Assembly: GCA_015488935.1 (NCBI GenBank)
Contig: WFMU01000331.1
Location: 1-5,290, forward strand
Length of the DNA stretch: 5,290 nt
Direction: 5' to 3'
From: Flavobacteriaceae bacterium
GTDB lineage: Bacteria > Bacteroidota > Bacteroidia > Flavobacteriales > Flavobacteriaceae
The notes under the pieces were generated by a model. The model saw only the letters and a list, made by a program, of their open reading frames with translations, did not search any database and was not told where the DNA came from. Shown piece by piece: positions 1 through 5,290 of this stretch. The position numbers and the translations under genes were made by a program. Positions within the stretch are counted from its first letter, which is position 1. Each line of letters starts with the position of its first letter.

Positions 1-2130
1 AAACAATTTTACGGACAAGAATATTCTTATAAATTAGAAGATGGTAAATCTAGTGGTGTAGCAACCTTTGAACCAAATGTTTCTAAAGAAAATCCTTTTA
101 TTGAACCTTTTTATGATAGTGCAGACCGAATATTAGCACCACGCGAGGTAAGTTATGTAGAAAAACCTTTTGGCGTTTCCTTTTTCCCAAGTGCAAGGGT
201 AACGTATTCTAGAGTAGAAGTAAAAAATTTAGAAAGAAAAAATGATACAAAGGTAGTAAAGAATAATGCCACAGGTAAAGTAGTAAATACTTTCTATACC
301 TCGTACGACTTTCCAACAAAAGCTGATTTTACTGATATAGATAAACCAAAAAATTGGGTATCTATACCAGATAGAGACCACCTGTATAAAAATATATTAA
401 AAGGAATCTTAGGAATGAAAATTACCACCAATGTAGAGATGACATATTCACAAGGATTTGTTGTACAAACCAATGATATGGATGGTAAAACAAGAAAACA
501 AGAAGTATATAATGAAGAAGGCGATTTTATTTCTGGCGTAGAATATAAATATAGTGTAAAAGAAAATGAAAGTAGATTAGAAAATAAATTACCAGTGATT
601 GATGCTTTAGGTAATATATCTAAAAAGGAAATAGCCACTCATTACGATGTGATAAATGATTTTAGAGAAAGTTACTCGAATACTAGAGTAAATGGACTAA
701 GCGCGAATATAGCTGTTTTTGGACTTGGACCAATACCTGTAATTATACCAATGGGACTACCAGAAAGAGCTGATCATACCAATATAATGCATACAGTTAC
801 TACCACAAAAGTAATACATAGTACTGGTATTTTAAAAGAGAAAATAGCTACCGATTTAGGCGCAAAAGTAGCTACAGAAAATTTAGCTTGGGATGCAATT
901 ACAGGGCAAGTACTTGTAACAAAAACAAAAAATGAATATAACGATGCTTATTATTCAATTAATTATCCAGCACATTGGAAGTATAAACCAATGGGCTTAG
1001 CTTCAAATAATATCAATCTATCTGGTGTATTAACACCAACTACAACATCAAATTTTACACTAAATAATGCAGAAGATTATTTGTTAGAAGGAGATGAATT
1101 GTACTTAGAATATGTTGACGCAGATAATGAAAATGTAGTAGAAAAGTTTTGGGTCTCTAAAGTGGCTAATAATAATGTTACTCTTATGGATAAATATGGT
1201 AAAGTACTAAATGATAGCAATCCTATTTTAAGTTCAAAATACAGTGTGCCAAATACTGCAAAGTTTAAAGTAATGCGTTCTGGCTATCGCAATTTACAAT
1301 CTGCTTCAATGGCATCTGTCACAACAATGACAAACCCTATTTATAATAACCAAATACCCGCAACATTAAAACCAAAACTAACCGCACAAAATACTAAAAT
1401 AGTTAATGCAAGTGCAATCGAATATACCGATTTATGGTCACCACAATGTGAGTGTTTAGGGATACCAAGTTTTGCTTACAACTTTAATGGAAATGGAGAT
1501 TTAGTTGATGAAAATGGAAATGCATATACAGATACAAATCCATTAGGAAATACCTTTGCTGCAATTAAAGGAGATTCTTTAAATCATTTTAATCCCTATT
1601 TATATAATGTTAAAGGAAATTTTAAAGCAGTAAGATCTTATGCATATTTAACAGAAAGAAATTCAAATATAAATGATGCTTCGCCACGTAGCGATGGTTT
1701 TTTTATAGAATTTGAACCATATTATATAACTACAGGTATTGGAAATAATACACATTGGATAAAAAATCCAACTGCAGATAGTAAATGGACCTTTGCGAGT
1801 AAAGTTTCTATGTATAGTCCTTATGGTGTAGAATTAGAAAATAAAGATGCTTTAGGTAGATATTCTTCTGCACAATATGGTTTTAACTATACCTTACCAA
1901 CAGCAGTAAGCTCTAATAGTAAATATACAGACATGGGTTATGATAGTTTTGAAGATTACCAATCAAATAAAGATTGTACAACAACACATTTTGCATATAG
2001 AAAAGCATTGTCAAATGATATAGGTAATGCAGCGATAACAAATAAAGAAGCACATACAGGACACAATGCCATAAAAGTAAAAGGAGGTACAAGTGCAACT
2101 TTAGAAAAACGTATTGAAAATTGTAATTAA
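1..2130 (+). CDS. Giant Bacteroidota Rhs-associated surface protein, C-terminal 709 residues (5' end outside window)
   Basis: Partial gene: the reading frame is open from base 1, so ATG 415 is an internal methionine, not the start. What I see: a sequence with no enzyme motif and no membrane span, rich in beta-prone Tyr/Asn/Thr stretches. It reads as a chain of blocks I recall from very large (thousands of residues) Flavobacteriia proteins encoded beside Rhs/YD-repeat genes. These are GQEYSYKLEDG near the left edge, FYTSYDFPTKADF (292-330), NDMDGKTRKQEVY, a glycine/proline hydrophobic patch FGLGPIPVIIPMG, AWDAITGQVLVTKTKNEYND (886-945), NYPAHWKY, GDELYLEY, a WSPQCECLG Cys pair (1435-1461), ALGRYSSAQYGFNYTLP, and a final HTGHNAIKVKGGTSATLEK strand set. 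It ends ...IENCN followed by tandem in-frame TAA TAA. The biochemical role is unknown; a cell-surface or secreted structural protein is an inference. The tail I would expect after this point (SAWVKE/EWQR domain and YD repeat) is absent here and lies in the next gene. It could alternatively be a naturally shorter family member. Confidence 0.85.
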   Translation, partial: KQFYGQEYSYKLEDGKSSGVATFEPNVSKENPFIEPFYDSADRILAPREVSYVEKPFGVSFFPSARVTYSRVEVKNLERKNDTKVVKNNATGKVVNTFYTSYDFPTKADFTDIDKPKNWVSIPDRDHLYKNILKGILGMKITTNVEMTYSQGFVVQTNDMDGKTRKQEVYNEEGDFISGVEYKYSVKENESRLENKLPVIDALGNISKKEIATHYDVINDFRESYSNTRVNGLSANIAVFGLGPIPVIIPMGLPERADHTNIMHTVTTTKVIHSTGILKEKIATDLGAKVATENLAWDAITGQVLVTKTKNEYNDAYYSINYPAHWKYKPMGLASNNINLSGVLTPTTTSNFTLNNAEDYLLEGDELYLEYVDADNENVVEKFWVSKVANNNVTLMDKYGKVLNDSNPILSSKYSVPNTAKFKVMRSGYRNLQSASMASVTTMTNPIYNNQIPATLKPKLTAQNTKIVNASAIEYTDLWSPQCECLGIPSFAYNFNGNGDLVDENGNAYTDTNPLGNTFAAIKGDSLNHFNPYLYNVKGNFKAVRSYAYLTERNSNINDASPRSDGFFIEFEPYYITTGIGNNTHWIKNPTADSKWTFASKVSMYSPYGVELENKDALGRYSSAQYGFNYTLPTAVSSNSKYTDMGYDSFEDYQSNKDCTTTHFAYRKALSNDIGNAAITNKEAHTGHNAIKVKGGTSATLEKRIENCN

Positions 2131-2161
2131 TAAATTAAGTATAAAAAATAAAAATTTACGA
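2131..2161 (+). other. Short A-rich intergenic leader
   Basis: Thirty-one bases between the tandem stop of the first gene and the preferred ATG of the second. They are almost entirely A and T with one more stop in the upstream frame (2149-2151). I see no hairpin with a T-run, so no intrinsic terminator, and no Bacteroidota -33/-7 pair (TTTG and TAnnTTTG) at workable spacing. There is no Shine-Dalgarno sequence. An A-rich leader before ATG is usual for Bacteroidota translation starts. The genes are therefore probably co-transcribed. Confidence 0.6.
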
Positions 2162-2224
2162 ATGAAAATATATAAAATAATAATATTCATTTTTATACTG
2201 AGTATAGTGAATAGGATGTCTGCC
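2162..2224 (+). other. Signal peptide of the modular protein
   Basis: Residues 1-21: a basic n-region (MKIYK), a strongly hydrophobic core (IIIFIFILSIV) and a polar end, RMSA, with likely Sec cleavage before Glu22-Asn23. No lipobox cysteine follows directly, so it looks like a type I signal peptidase substrate rather than a lipoprotein. The exact cleavage site is a guess. This segment is the main reason for treating the gene as an independent secreted protein and not a frameshifted continuation of the upstream one. Confidence 0.8.
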
Positions 2225-5092
2225 GAAAATCTACCTACAACCTGTCAAAATCCAGATATAGCTGAATATGGTTACGATTTTAATGCTAATCAGTTAGTTG
2301 TTACTTTGCGGTATGATGACCCTACACAGTATGCAGATGTTTATCAATGGGAAATTAAATGGGGAAATAATCCAGATATAATTCGTTTTGATCCTAGTGT
2401 TTCAGGTACAGAAGCAGGTTCATATATTGTTAATGGACCAATAACACCAGATACATCAGGTAATTATGTTATTCGTTTGAATATACCTTATTCAGAAATT
2501 TATTTGTCAGGAGGAACTTCAGGTTCTACGTTAAATTATAGTTTTCACATTCAAACAACATGTCACAGTGGAACTTCAGACTGGAGTTTAATTCAAAATG
2601 ATTTTAAATACATAACTGGTTTTGAATGTATGAGTGAAAGTACGGTAAAAATAAATTTTGGTACTCTAACACAGCCTATTTCTAAATTTAGAATTATTTA
2701 TGGACCAAAAGGTTTTGACCCTTCCTTAGCAGAGAGTGCGTTAAATGCAATTGGTGCATACATAGTTGAAACGGCATTTCCACCACCAGTAGAAGGTCCA
2801 CAGTATATGTTTGTTTATGGATTGCAAGGAATAGTTTATGATTTTTATATACAGCGTATAGAGAATGTAGGAACTGGGAATGAATCTATATGGGGATATA
2901 ATCTAATACCATATACATTTGATATAAAAGGGTGTGCTGGAACTAACCCACCACTCTGTCAACCTTTAACTGCTATACAAATAACCAATATTGCTGGTAC
3001 ACAAATCCAATTAGATTGGTTAGATTCAAATAGTCCTGCAACAGTATGGCAATTAGAATATGGTCTGCAAGGTTTTACTCAAGGTACAGGAACCATTATA
3101 AATGGCATTACAAGTCCAACATATACCTTAACAGGTTTATTAGAATTTACTGCGTATGATGTTTATATTACAGCAAATTGTAACGATTTTGGTTTAAGTG
3201 ATGCAACACAAGTAAGTTTTACAACCACTGCACAACAGTGTGCTATACCACTTAATTTACAAGCAAGTCCTACAGACACATCAGTCTATTTAAGTTGGGA
3301 AGATGGCGATACTACACAAGAACCTGGTGCTTGGGAGGTAACCTATGCATTATCAAATTATGACCCAAATACCGATCAATTAGCAACACAAATAACTACC
3401 TATGCTCCAGAAATAACTATAGAAGATTTAATTCCTTCAAATGCTTATGATTTTTGGGTAAGGTCTGTTTGTAGTTATGGGAATTCAGATTGGGTATTAG
3501 TACATGTAGATACGCCATGTACAAGTTGTTCTTCTTTTACACCTCAAATCGGAAAAGAATATGTTATTAGTGCGTGGGTTAAAGAAAATTGGGATACAAG
3601 ACCAACAGTAACAATGAATCCTCCTGTAAATAAAATAAAAGAAATGTTAAATGATTTGGTTTTACTATACAATACAAATTATAATACAGACAATCCAATA
3701 TGTCCAAATGGAACTCAAATAACGGCAGTAAATGAGATGATTACTGCTAATTTATTTCATGAAGAACTAATACAAACCATAGATGGAATTTCTGGGCAAA
3801 CAGCACCAAGAATTTATAATTTTCAATATTATACCAAAGAAAATAAAAGTGAATTTAGATTTCAGTTTACTAAAGGAGAACACCATTGGTCAGACAATTT
3901 ATTAAAGAATCCAGGAGCCGAATTGGGAACAGATAATTGGAGTGGAAGAATTTTTTCTTCTTTGTCTGTAAATGAAAGATGTGGAGCAGGAACCCCAAAT
4001 ACTAAGGATGGTAATACAGGAAGCCGTTTCTTTTGGATGGGGATTAATTGTGGTGTAAATTATGGAAGTTCATTGCAAATTTATCAAGATGTAGATGTAT
4101 CTGAATACTTAATTGATAACGGAGATAGTACCGTAGAAATATCAGGTTATATGAAAGGACATGATAATGAACGTAATGTGGGCGATACACAAAAGATACA
4201 ACTTATATTTATAGATAGTTCGGGCGAACTTGTAGGAATTACAGATCCTTCTTCAGATAATATGTTTAATGATGTGGGAGTAAATGCATCTGCACAAGTA
4301 TGGTATAAATATACACACGAGTATCCTATTCCACCAAAAACTAGAACCATCAGAGTTAAATTAATAGGAGAAAACGGAGTACCAAATAATGAAAATGATT
4401 CCTTTTTTGATGATTTGTCTTTAAAAGTAAATTACCCAACTTTTGATGACTTATCTCCAGTACAATCTTTTGATGTTGATTGTTATAATAATGGAATTTA
4501 CGAACATAATACTGTAACTACGGTAACCGATCCTGCTCACTATCCATTCAGTAATTATTATTATAATTTGCAATATACATGTAATGCTAACTCTATTGAT
4601 AGTAAGTATAAATATGGAAAAAATGTATATACTTCGACTGCCAGTACTGTAACAATAGGTCAACAGGTATATACCTATAATAAGACATACTTAGAATTAA
4701 CATTTTTAAACAATCAAGATGAAATTATACCCGATTTTACTGGAGTATCAAATAGGAGATATTACCCAAGCGGAAATATTATAGATGAATGGCAACGAAT
4801 ACAAGGAACTTTTAAAGCACCAATAGGTACAGTTAAAGTAAAAATAGCATTGGTAAACAAACATATAAGTGATGCCTTTTTTGACGATGTTCGTGTATTT
4901 CCTGCCGAGGGAAATATGAAATCCTTTGTTTACGATCAAATAACACAAAAATTAATGGCAGAATTAGATGAAAATAATTATGCAACATTTTACGAATACG
5001 ATAAAGAAGGAGGACTAATACGTGTTAAAAAAGAAACCGAAAAAGGAATATTTACCATACAAGAAACACGTAGTGGTAATGTAAAAAAATAA
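2162..5092 (+). CDS. Secreted FN3 / carbohydrate-binding-like / YD-repeat modular protein, 976 aa
   Basis: Start chosen at ATG 2162 because it opens directly with a signal peptide. The longer frame from TTG 2114 overlaps the previous gene and puts a charged, Asn/Lys-rich 16-residue stretch ahead of it. Domain order by residue: signal peptide 1-21; two divergent FN3-like units about 27-150 and 151-258; two clearer FN3 units about 266-356 and 360-453; first half of a jelly-roll domain with GKEYVISAWVKEN (464-476); unassigned 477-576; galactose-binding-like sandwich 577-757; unassigned 758-815; second half of the jelly roll with IIDEWQRIQGTF and AFFDDVRVFP (to about 914); one YD repeat 920-955; tail ending RSGNVKK. 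No catalytic motif, no transmembrane helix after the signal, and no recognisable type IX secretion C-terminal domain. Expected location is periplasm or cell surface, binding glycans or proteins. It lies 31 bases after the previous gene and 12 before the next. The combination suggests a fission/fusion product of the giant-protein family. Function is unproven. Confidence 0.88.
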   Translation: MKIYKIIIFIFILSIVNRMSAENLPTTCQNPDIAEYGYDFNANQLVVTLRYDDPTQYADVYQWEIKWGNNPDIIRFDPSVSGTEAGSYIVNGPITPDTSGNYVIRLNIPYSEIYLSGGTSGSTLNYSFHIQTTCHSGTSDWSLIQNDFKYITGFECMSESTVKINFGTLTQPISKFRIIYGPKGFDPSLAESALNAIGAYIVETAFPPPVEGPQYMFVYGLQGIVYDFYIQRIENVGTGNESIWGYNLIPYTFDIKGCAGTNPPLCQPLTAIQITNIAGTQIQLDWLDSNSPATVWQLEYGLQGFTQGTGTIINGITSPTYTLTGLLEFTAYDVYITANCNDFGLSDATQVSFTTTAQQCAIPLNLQASPTDTSVYLSWEDGDTTQEPGAWEVTYALSNYDPNTDQLATQITTYAPEITIEDLIPSNAYDFWVRSVCSYGNSDWVLVHVDTPCTSCSSFTPQIGKEYVISAWVKENWDTRPTVTMNPPVNKIKEMLNDLVLLYNTNYNTDNPICPNGTQITAVNEMITANLFHEELIQTIDGISGQTAPRIYNFQYYTKENKSEFRFQFTKGEHHWSDNLLKNPGAELGTDNWSGRIFSSLSVNERCGAGTPNTKDGNTGSRFFWMGINCGVNYGSSLQIYQDVDVSEYLIDNGDSTVEISGYMKGHDNERNVGDTQKIQLIFIDSSGELVGITDPSSDNMFNDVGVNASAQVWYKYTHEYPIPPKTRTIRVKLIGENGVPNNENDSFFDDLSLKVNYPTFDDLSPVQSFDVDCYNNGIYEHNTVTTVTDPAHYPFSNYYYNLQYTCNANSIDSKYKYGKNVYTSTASTVTIGQQVYTYNKTYLELTFLNNQDEIIPDFTGVSNRRYYPSGNIIDEWQRIQGTFKAPIGTVKVKIALVNKHISDAFFDDVRVFPAEGNMKSFVYDQITQKLMAELDENNYATFYEYDKEGGLIRVKKETEKGIFTIQETRSGNVKK
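2240..3520 (+). repeat. Array of up to four fibronectin type III-like units (protein-level repeat)
   Basis: The last strands of each unit recur: LNYSFHIQTTCHSGTSDWS (residues 124-142), IVYDFYIQRIENVGTGNES (224-242), AYDVYITANCNDFGLSDAT (331-349) and AYDFWVRSVCSYGNSDWV (428-445). A second signature also recurs as IIYGPKGFDP, LEYGLQGFTQGTG and, more weakly, VTYALSNYDPN. Units 3 and 4 (266-356 and 360-453) open with C-x-x-P/L and have the FN3 core tryptophan (LDW, LSW). Units 1 and 2 are degenerate, and their boundaries are approximate. Repeats are at protein level only; the DNA copies have diverged. Such arrays act as spacers or adhesive modules in secreted Bacteroidota proteins. Confidence 0.75.
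3524..3589 (+). other. First half of a split jelly-roll (SAWVKE) domain
   Basis: Residues about 455-476, with FTPQIGKEYVISAWVKEN. The 'GK-Y-x-I/F-S-x-W-V-K' strand is the start of a carbohydrate-binding-like beta-sandwich found near the end of the giant Rhs-associated Bacteroidota proteins. The strands that should pack against it, ending in EWQR and FFDDVRV, come only about 400 residues later, which indicates that material has been inserted within this domain. Confidence 0.55.
3890..4432 (+). other. Galactose-binding-like / carbohydrate-binding beta-sandwich domain
   Basis: Residues about 577-757. It opens with NLLKNPGAELGTDNWSG, the usual entry strand of CBM4/9-type and related galactose-binding-like domains. 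It continues with GNTGSRFFWMG, a YQDVDVS strand followed by VEISGYMKG, a QLIFIDSSGELVG strand pair, then PPKTRTIRVKLIG and NDSFFDDLSLKV as the closing strands. The order and spacing match a complete single domain, so it looks functional rather than decayed. Ligand cannot be told from the sequence; a glycan is the usual target of this fold. Confidence 0.7.
4604..4906 (+). other. Second half of the split jelly-roll (EWQR) domain
   Basis: Residues about 815-915. Contains TYLELTFLNNQDEIIPDF, then GNIIDEWQRIQGTFKAPIGT, VKVKIALVNK and AFFDDVRVFPAEG. This is the closing part of the same sandwich type that begins with SAWVKE at residues 464-475. It leads directly, through GNMKSFVYD, into the YD repeat, an arrangement I recall as constant in the family. 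Confidence 0.55.
4919..5026 (+). other. Single terminal YD (Rhs-type) repeat
   Basis: Residues about 920-955 fit the Rhs/YD pattern 'YD-x-x-x-G/Q-x-L-x-A-x-x-D-x-N-x-x-x-x-Y-x-YD-x-x-G-x-L': FVYDQITQKLMAELDENN then TFYEYDKEGGLIRVKKETE. Only one copy is present and the protein ends 21 residues later, so it cannot form the beta-cocoon of full Rhs toxins alone. It more likely marks evolutionary or physical association with an Rhs-core protein encoded nearby. Confidence 0.7.
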
Positions 5093-5104: not shown

Positions 5105-5290
5105 ATGAAAAGAATTTTAACATTAATTGTATTTATATTATCCATTCAAATTCAAGCACAAACAGTTAAGGATATATTAAATAAAGTAAAAAACAAATTT
5201 GAAGAAAAGCAGCACTATAAAATAAAAGTGGATTATACCTTATATAGAGGGTTAACAAGTAAACAGAAATTATTTAGTTATGGAGGAGAA
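5105..5290 (+). CDS. Small secreted protein of unknown function, N-terminal 62 residues (3' end outside window)
   Basis: ATG 5105 follows the previous stop by 12 A-rich bases, so it is surely in the same operon. The start is supported by an immediate signal peptide: basic MKR, hydrophobic ILTLIVFILSI, then IQAQT with probable cleavage between Ala18 and Gln19, a very common Bacteroidota exit site. The mature start TVKDILNKVKNKFEEKQ is an amphipathic helix, followed by beta-prone HYKIKVDYTLYRG and LFSYGGE. A helix and then antiparallel strands with 'Y-x-L-Y-x-G' resembles the opening of LolA-like periplasmic lipoprotein carriers. I recall small secreted proteins of this type next to the giant Rhs-associated genes. 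The LolA-like reading is weak with only 62 residues visible, and no function should be transferred from it. Confidence 0.8.
   Translation, partial: MKRILTLIVFILSIQIQAQTVKDILNKVKNKFEEKQHYKIKVDYTLYRGLTSKQKLFSYGGE

What the first reader, a model, noticed from the sequence alone, without database searches (positions are those of the whole stretch)
2095..3590. A normally continuous giant protein appears split in two, with a new secreted N-terminus on the second piece
The upstream gene stops at ...TLEKRIENCN with tandem TAA TAA (2128-2133). The blocks I remember as following it in homologues (GKEYVISAWVKE, IIDEWQR, FFDDVRVFP, YD repeat) occur instead at the end of the next gene, behind its own signal peptide and FN3 array. 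The two genes are in different frames, and a signal peptide intervenes, so one frameshift would not restore a sensible fusion. This suggests gene fission with gain of about 1.4 kb of FN3-coding DNA, giving a two-protein version that could reassemble outside the cytoplasm.
Basis: partly seen in the sequence, partly recalled or inferred. Interest (0 to 1): 0.72.

Follow-up and report, generated by a model that had tools for sequence, protein, structure and literature searches.

The report
Giant secreted protein split mid-domain
A giant protein that relatives across the Bacteroidota phylum make as one chain is encoded here by two neighbouring genes cut inside a predicted sugar-binding-type domain; the second piece carries its own predicted export signal and extra domains, and the two pieces likely come back together outside the cytoplasm.

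Summary
62 of 66 database relatives show both parts in one chain. In Flavobacteriaceae the split form dominates: of 32 strong places in 397 genomes, 27 are split, 4 joined, 1 unresolved. The cut is not between domains but inside one, a CBM-like sandwich: A keeps the first strands, B the rest plus a YD tail. In 17 of 46 split loci B is little more than signal peptide, half domain and tail, so reassembly with A is the simplest reading. The FN3 array is this lineage's version; other B proteins carry LRR, PKD, Ig or VWA domains, or almost nothing. Both halves look to be under purifying selection. Cysteines beside the cut co-vary between A and B, with one discordant clade and a sensitive threshold, hinting at an inter-chain disulfide. 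Best structural match of a joined relative: mosquito SGS1, a Tc-like Rhs/YD shell with a CBM. A second cut site exists elsewhere. Binding, secretion route and function are untested.

The parts
1..2130 (+). Gene A, 3' part (709 aa, open at the contig start): C-terminal part of a giant Rhs/YD-shell-like protein; uncut homologous frames are about 1,870-2,170 codons
1939..2127 (+). First half of the split CBM-like domain (YDSFEDY ... HTGHNAIKV ... ATLEKRIENCN) at the very end of A
   Evidence: matched to joined chains L045, L046, L137
2122..2124 (+). Cys codon of A, one residue before the end; candidate partner of the dock cysteines of B
2128..2133 (+). Tandem TAA TAA ending A
2162..5092 (+). Gene B (976 aa)
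2162..2224 (+). Predicted signal peptide of B (my hydrophobicity rule; no SignalP run)
2225..3517 (+). Variable front end of B in this lineage; fn3 recognised by Pfam, best stretch 3248-3493
3518..3586 (+). Dock of B: CTSCSSFTPQIGKEYVISAWVKE, two cysteines and the first strand of the second half of the split domain
3587..4681 (+). Insertion inside the second half, with what looks by eye like another galactose-binding-like module at about 3899-4429
   Evidence: for the length; module by eye only
4682..5089 (+). Rest of the split domain (KTYLELTF ... IIDEWQR ... FFDDVRVFP) and YD-type tail to the C-terminus; the last 106 residues are the conserved B tail
   Evidence: residues 842-968 are among the confident parts of an otherwise poor model
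5105..5290 (+). Start of the next gene, LolA3-family-like, cut by the contig end
   Evidence: NF053579, E 1.7e-12, 47.4 bits on the 62-residue fragment

Best explanation
The window holds a two-gene form of a giant, predicted Rhs/YD-shell-like Bacteroidota protein, cut inside one predicted CBM-like sandwich, whose two pieces are predicted to be exported separately and likely refold together outside the cytoplasm. Shown: joined and split forms both exist; the A half and the B half are both kept; B has a signal-like start in each of 46 split loci by my rule; in the model of a joined homologue the cut falls in a low-confidence loop of one domain. Inferred: A (shell with the first strands) and B (remaining strands plus YD tail) complete one sandwich non-covalently, in many lineages also held by a disulfide between the cysteine at the end of A and the dock cysteine of B. 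Fission turned a loop of the shell into a free N-terminus, so different lineages could hang different modules (FN3, LRR, PKD, Ig, VWA or none) in front of the same dock. The neighbouring genes, a LolA3-like carrier and, in L048, a giant DUF6443/RHS protein with an Rhs core, suggest that A+B is one part of a Tc/Rhs-like cocoon and the RHS gene the rest (inferred, untested).
Against: No complex was predicted or tested. Pfam support for a half domain is weak: the minimal B of L048 matches CBM_4_9 only at positions 58-133 of 136 and L051 only at 63-127, but the joined L137 also matches only 61-131, and the A half of the window has no hit; only joined L046 matches from 28 on. The model of window B is poor (mean pLDDT 48.7) and P0031 is a distant relative with a poor overall mean (47.7). 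In minimal-B loci A carries a 130-207 residue stretch from the HTG motif on, which could complete the sandwich by itself. The cysteine signal exists only for offsets 24-30, the rule was chosen after looking, and a clade of 9 loci breaks it. Export was judged by a simple hydrophobicity rule. Eight of the 20 dS values exceed 1.
Confidence: 0.6

Rival explanations
1. Two independent proteins: after the fission each half was completed or replaced by new sequence, and A and B no longer bind.
For: A tails in many loci run 130-244 residues from the HTG motif on, and B often carries large new modules; in 8 of 46 loci 4-12 kb separate A from B.
Against: 17 of 46 B proteins are little more than signal peptide, half domain and tail; in W, L042, L054 and L204-L209 A ends 25-36 residues after the start of the HTG motif, which leaves little room to complete the sandwich; both halves look to be under purifying selection.
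Confidence: 0.24
2. B completes a different partner (itself as a dimer, or the downstream RHS protein), and the A half is a conserved leftover.
For: An RHS gene lies two genes further on in L048, and B ends in a YD-type tail.
Against: In the predicted fold of a joined relative the B half and the A half form one domain; in the A half H-F and H..G are invariant in 13 of 13 aligned split loci.
Confidence: 0.1
3. Broken gene: decay, frameshift or assembly error of a once single protein.
For: The window is a small contig of a fragmented bin; one other bin, L130, has A itself in two frames.
Against: Split in 46 loci including single-contig assemblies and isolates; signal-like start on B in 46 of 46; low dN/dS.
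Confidence: 0.02
4. Two genes are ancestral and the joined forms are fusions.
For: Joined L137, and L137 with P0005, lie inside the split clade of the best trees; one split locus of another order (L202) lies outside it.
Against: The split family loci are nested in successive joined relatives with support 96-99; joined forms include named Chitinophaga, Mucilaginibacter and Saprospira proteins. Monophyly of the family's split loci is not rejected (p-AU 0.285; 0.304). Rooting was arbitrary (midpoint or P0048).
Confidence: 0.04

Closest known systems
SGS1, mosquito salivary gland surface protein 1 (PDB 8fjp; PMC9935623, abstract and passages seen)
   Different: One chain of 3,364 aa that includes the whole shell; here the CBM-like domain is cut between two genes and the rest of the shell is likely another gene
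Tc toxin TcB/TcC cocoon (TcdB/TcaC-like systems; PMC3482391, passages seen; structural details recalled)
   Same: A shell made by more than one protein (recalled), next to an RHS protein with an Rhs core
   Different: Tc shells meet between TcB and TcC (recalled); here one inserted domain is itself shared by two chains. No SpvB or TcdB Pfam hit in the window's A piece or in A of L048
Bacteroidota RHS polymorphic toxins
   Same: The RHS gene beyond LolA3 in L048/L221 (one genome) has DUF6443, RHS repeats, an Rhs core and core-bearing genes downstream
   Different: A and B of L048 have no Rhs core hit
Natural split proteins after gene fission (e.g. split cox2, PMC9895450, search listing only)
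   Same: One ancestral chain made as two complementary gene products
   Different: Here the downstream piece carries its own signal peptide and variable modules, and the cut is inside a sandwich domain

Membership tests
CBM_4_9 (PF02018) domain | Match above the Pfam gathering score (25.9) | tested here: inconclusive
   Minimal B of L048 29.1 bits but positions 58-133 only; joined L046 22.5, joined L137 22.0, B of L051 21.8, all below the cut-off; window pieces no hit
CBM-like / galactose-binding-like fold | Sandwich matching solved CBMs | tested here: met
Rhs/YD shell (Tc-like, SGS1-like) | Rhs/YD strands around the CBM | tested here: met
Tc toxin TcB | SpvB domain and beta-propeller | tested here: inconclusive
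   No Pfam hit in the window's A piece or in A of L048; the N-terminal part was not folded
RHS polymorphic toxin (A or B as such) | Rhs core in A or B | tested here: not met
   No NCBIfam hit in A or B of L048; core found in the downstream RHS gene and two further genes of L221. Window A and B were not scanned with NCBIfam
LolA3 family (next gene) | NF053579 above its cut-off of 83 bits | tested here: inconclusive
   Cut 62-residue fragment 47.4 bits; homologous genes 180.6 (L048), 186.3 (L051) and 76.2 bits (L046, below the cut-off)

The most novel reading that the evidence does not exclude
A plug-in architecture born by gene fission: a Tc/Rhs-like shell protein ends in half a sandwich domain, and a separately exported partner supplies the other half, locked by an inter-chain disulfide in many lineages, so that interchangeable surface modules are snapped onto one conserved shell. 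The same kind of cut arose at least twice, at two sites.
Probability: 0.35. Interest if true: 0.82.

Novelty: new variant of a known kind. Interest (0 to 1): 0.64.

Why it matters
If true, it is a natural, family-wide example of a protein cut inside a domain with both pieces sent across the membrane separately and reunited, the cut being reused as an attachment point for new modules.

Tried and rejected
Cysteine pairing as proof: supportive but fragile. Offsets 24-30 give Fisher p 7.9e-5 to 9.8e-6; at 22 p is 1; at 32 and 34 it is lost (0.28, 0.13); at 36-40 it is weakly reversed (0.018). The clade of 9 TSP3-like A tails (label by eye) has a dock cysteine without the near A cysteine.

Pfam half-match as proof of a half domain: rejected, because joined L137 also matches CBM_4_9 only from position 61.

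Independent fission of L202 (another order): it groups with joined P0028 (support 86), but placing it with the family group is not rejected (p-AU 0.385). A single fission within the family is not rejected. The first constrained test ('fast' search, p-AU 0.006) was badly optimised and is discarded in favour.

Foldseek of the poor window B model: best rows are the sugar-recognising F-box proteins 3wso_A (E 1.5e-4) and 2rj2 (1.3e-3) and phage tail fibres; not used. The profile of the joined domain against PDB sequences gave nothing below E 0.045; CBM-bearing entries at 0.1-0.3. PHROGs: no hit for A or B. Site-2 splits were seen in context in 3 loci only (L216-L218); P0003, P0004, P0006, P0008-P0010 and P0031 start at a similar place but their neighbours were not seen.

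Papers: searches listed no description of this split; subscription papers are not held.

Full report
What is in the window. The window is an entire contig (C331) of a fragmented genome bin. Gene A is open at the contig start and ends at 2127 with TAA TAA. Gene B (976 aa) starts 31 nt later in another frame, with a hydrophobic, signal-like start. A third gene starts at 5105 and is cut by the contig end; its 62 residues match the LolA3 family below the cut-off. In Pfam, fn3 is the only family above its cut-off in B, and A has no hit.

Are there single-chain homologues? Yes. A search with the region around the junction of a joined homologue (L046) found 66 proteins. 62 show the A tail and the B tail in one chain, two of them (P0061, P0064) with only a very weak A-tail score; 2 show only the B tail (P0051, P0062) and 2 only the A tail (P0065, P0066). 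Seven of the 62 (P0003, P0004, P0006, P0008-P0010, P0031) lack the giant front part and start near a second site. Named joined ones include Chitinophaga, Mucilaginibacter and Saprospira proteins. In six-frame searches, L045 and L046 (other families of the same order) read through the junction in 2,098- and 2,072-codon frames. In continuous relatives the gap is a short loop, e.g. HTGKRSLRVQSPTLDVRSDLELEGEKEYVISAWVK in L046 and HTGRKSLKL...KIINFSEECTSFSPLKNKKYIFSVWVK in L137. The window reads HTGHNAIKVKGGTSATLEKRIENCN, stop, then in B CTSCSSFTPQIGKEYVISAWVKE.

How common is the split? In 397 genomes of the family, 49 have a B-tail match and 33 an A-tail match. Of the 32 B-tail places above 100 bits, 27 are split, 4 joined (L137, L142, L144, L145) and 1 unresolved (A and B on different contigs). 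Weaker B-tail places of the family lie mostly in frames of about 1,500-2,260 codons and, where looked at, are joined (L146, L147, L149, L150). Over all loci examined in detail, 46 of 57 are split, 8 joined, and 3 lack one part. Outside the family, one genome of another order in the class (L202) is also split. The frames of the stronger hits in family f7 of the same order are mostly about 2,000-2,300 codons, as expected for joined genes, but most were not examined one by one.

What B is. Each of 46 split B proteins has a signal-like start by my rule, against 67 of 4,860 internal control pieces. B front ends differ: fn3 in the window, LRR, Ig and VWA in L053, LRR and Ig_7 in L056, PKD in L054; L055 and L043 gave no hit. 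In 17 of 46 the dock follows the signal peptide almost directly. A database search with such a minimal B (which by its length limit sees only small proteins) found 620; of the 120 listed, 112 start with M and have at least 170 aa, 101 of these with a signal-like start, and the dock lies a median 36 residues from the start in the 105 where it was found. Half a sandwich with its own export signal, kept in many genomes, is the strongest argument that it meets its other half after export. In 38 of 46 loci B starts within 150 nt of A's stop; in the other 8 (Flavobacterium sp. SLB02 and similar loci, and Mesonia) 4-12 kb lie between. In Mesonia (L055) the two genes between have T9SS sorting domains; the two in L054 gave no NCBIfam hit.

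Evolution. Trees of A and B tails place the family's split loci together, nested in joined relatives, with joined L137 inside in the first tree (support 98 for that clade, 96-99 for the joined relatives around it) and L137 and P0005 inside in the second (support 93). Monophyly of the family's split loci is not rejected (p-AU 0.285; 0.304), so one fission suffices for the family. L202 groups elsewhere, but a single origin is not rejected (p-AU 0.385). P0005 is joined with about 150 residues inserted exactly at the cut site between cysteines, which suggests insertion first and fission later (inferred). In other families the gene is cut upstream of this site: in L216-L218 A ends in frames of 1,629-1,676 codons, and the next gene, with a hydrophobic start by eye, carries the rest including the CBM region.

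Do the halves still matter? In 12 pairs of split loci dN/dS is 0.05-0.41 for the A half (0.41 for the window and L042) and 0.02-0.17 for the B tail in the 20 of 24 estimates that were not saturated; 8 of these have dS above 1, and the A-half estimates rest on 55-68 codons.

Cysteines. With a cysteine within 28 residues of HTG in A, the B dock has a cysteine in 20 of 20 loci; without it, 15 of 24 docks lack one and 9, all from one clade, have one. A dependent-evolution model fits better (LR 24.9, 4 df, p 5e-5). This depends on the offset rule, chosen after looking, and vanishes at 32. Several joined chains have cysteines at both ends of the loop (P0005, P0020, P0022, P0028, P0047, P0049, P0050, P0060); others have one only near the dock (P0012, P0029, P0041) or none. 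It is a lead, not a proof, that an old intra-chain link became an inter-chain one.

Neighbourhood. A LolA3-like gene follows split (L048, L051) and joined (L046, below the cut-off) forms; L045 has no such small gene before the next giant frame. The giant gene beyond it has DUF6443 and RHS repeats in L048 and an Rhs core, with two downstream core-bearing genes, in L221, the same genome read further. That is the layout of polymorphic toxin systems (PMC3482391, passages seen). The giant frame after L046 was not scanned. From this I infer, without test, that A+B is a partner shell of that RHS protein. In F. johnsoniae lolA3 deletion did not affect gliding or amylase secretion (PMC11885536, passages).

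Verdict. It is wider and more interesting than stated, because the cut runs through a predicted domain; but nothing here shows the two proteins together.

Noticed in passing
L216, L217, L218: A second cut site upstream of the window's one: A ends in frames of 1,629-1,676 codons and the next gene carries the rest, with another front end.
   Followed up: partly
L221:11244-12260 and 12818-13792: Two short genes with an Rhs core and different tails downstream of the giant RHS gene, like spare C-terminal cassettes.
   Followed up: partly
L055:12137-19057: Two genes with T9SS type A sorting domains lie between A and B in Mesonia phycicola.
   Followed up: partly
L049 (= L117), L121, L124, L137, L138 (genome G239): One genome holds five copies of the system, four split and one joined.
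   Followed up: no
L130: Gene A of this bin is itself read in two frames (1,826 and 239 codons), a likely extra break or assembly error.
   Followed up: no
window 3899-4429: B seems, by eye, to hold a second galactose-binding-like module inserted within the second half of the split domain.
   Followed up: no
L222: The RHS gene appears duplicated in tandem with identical starts (565 and 11178).
   Followed up: no
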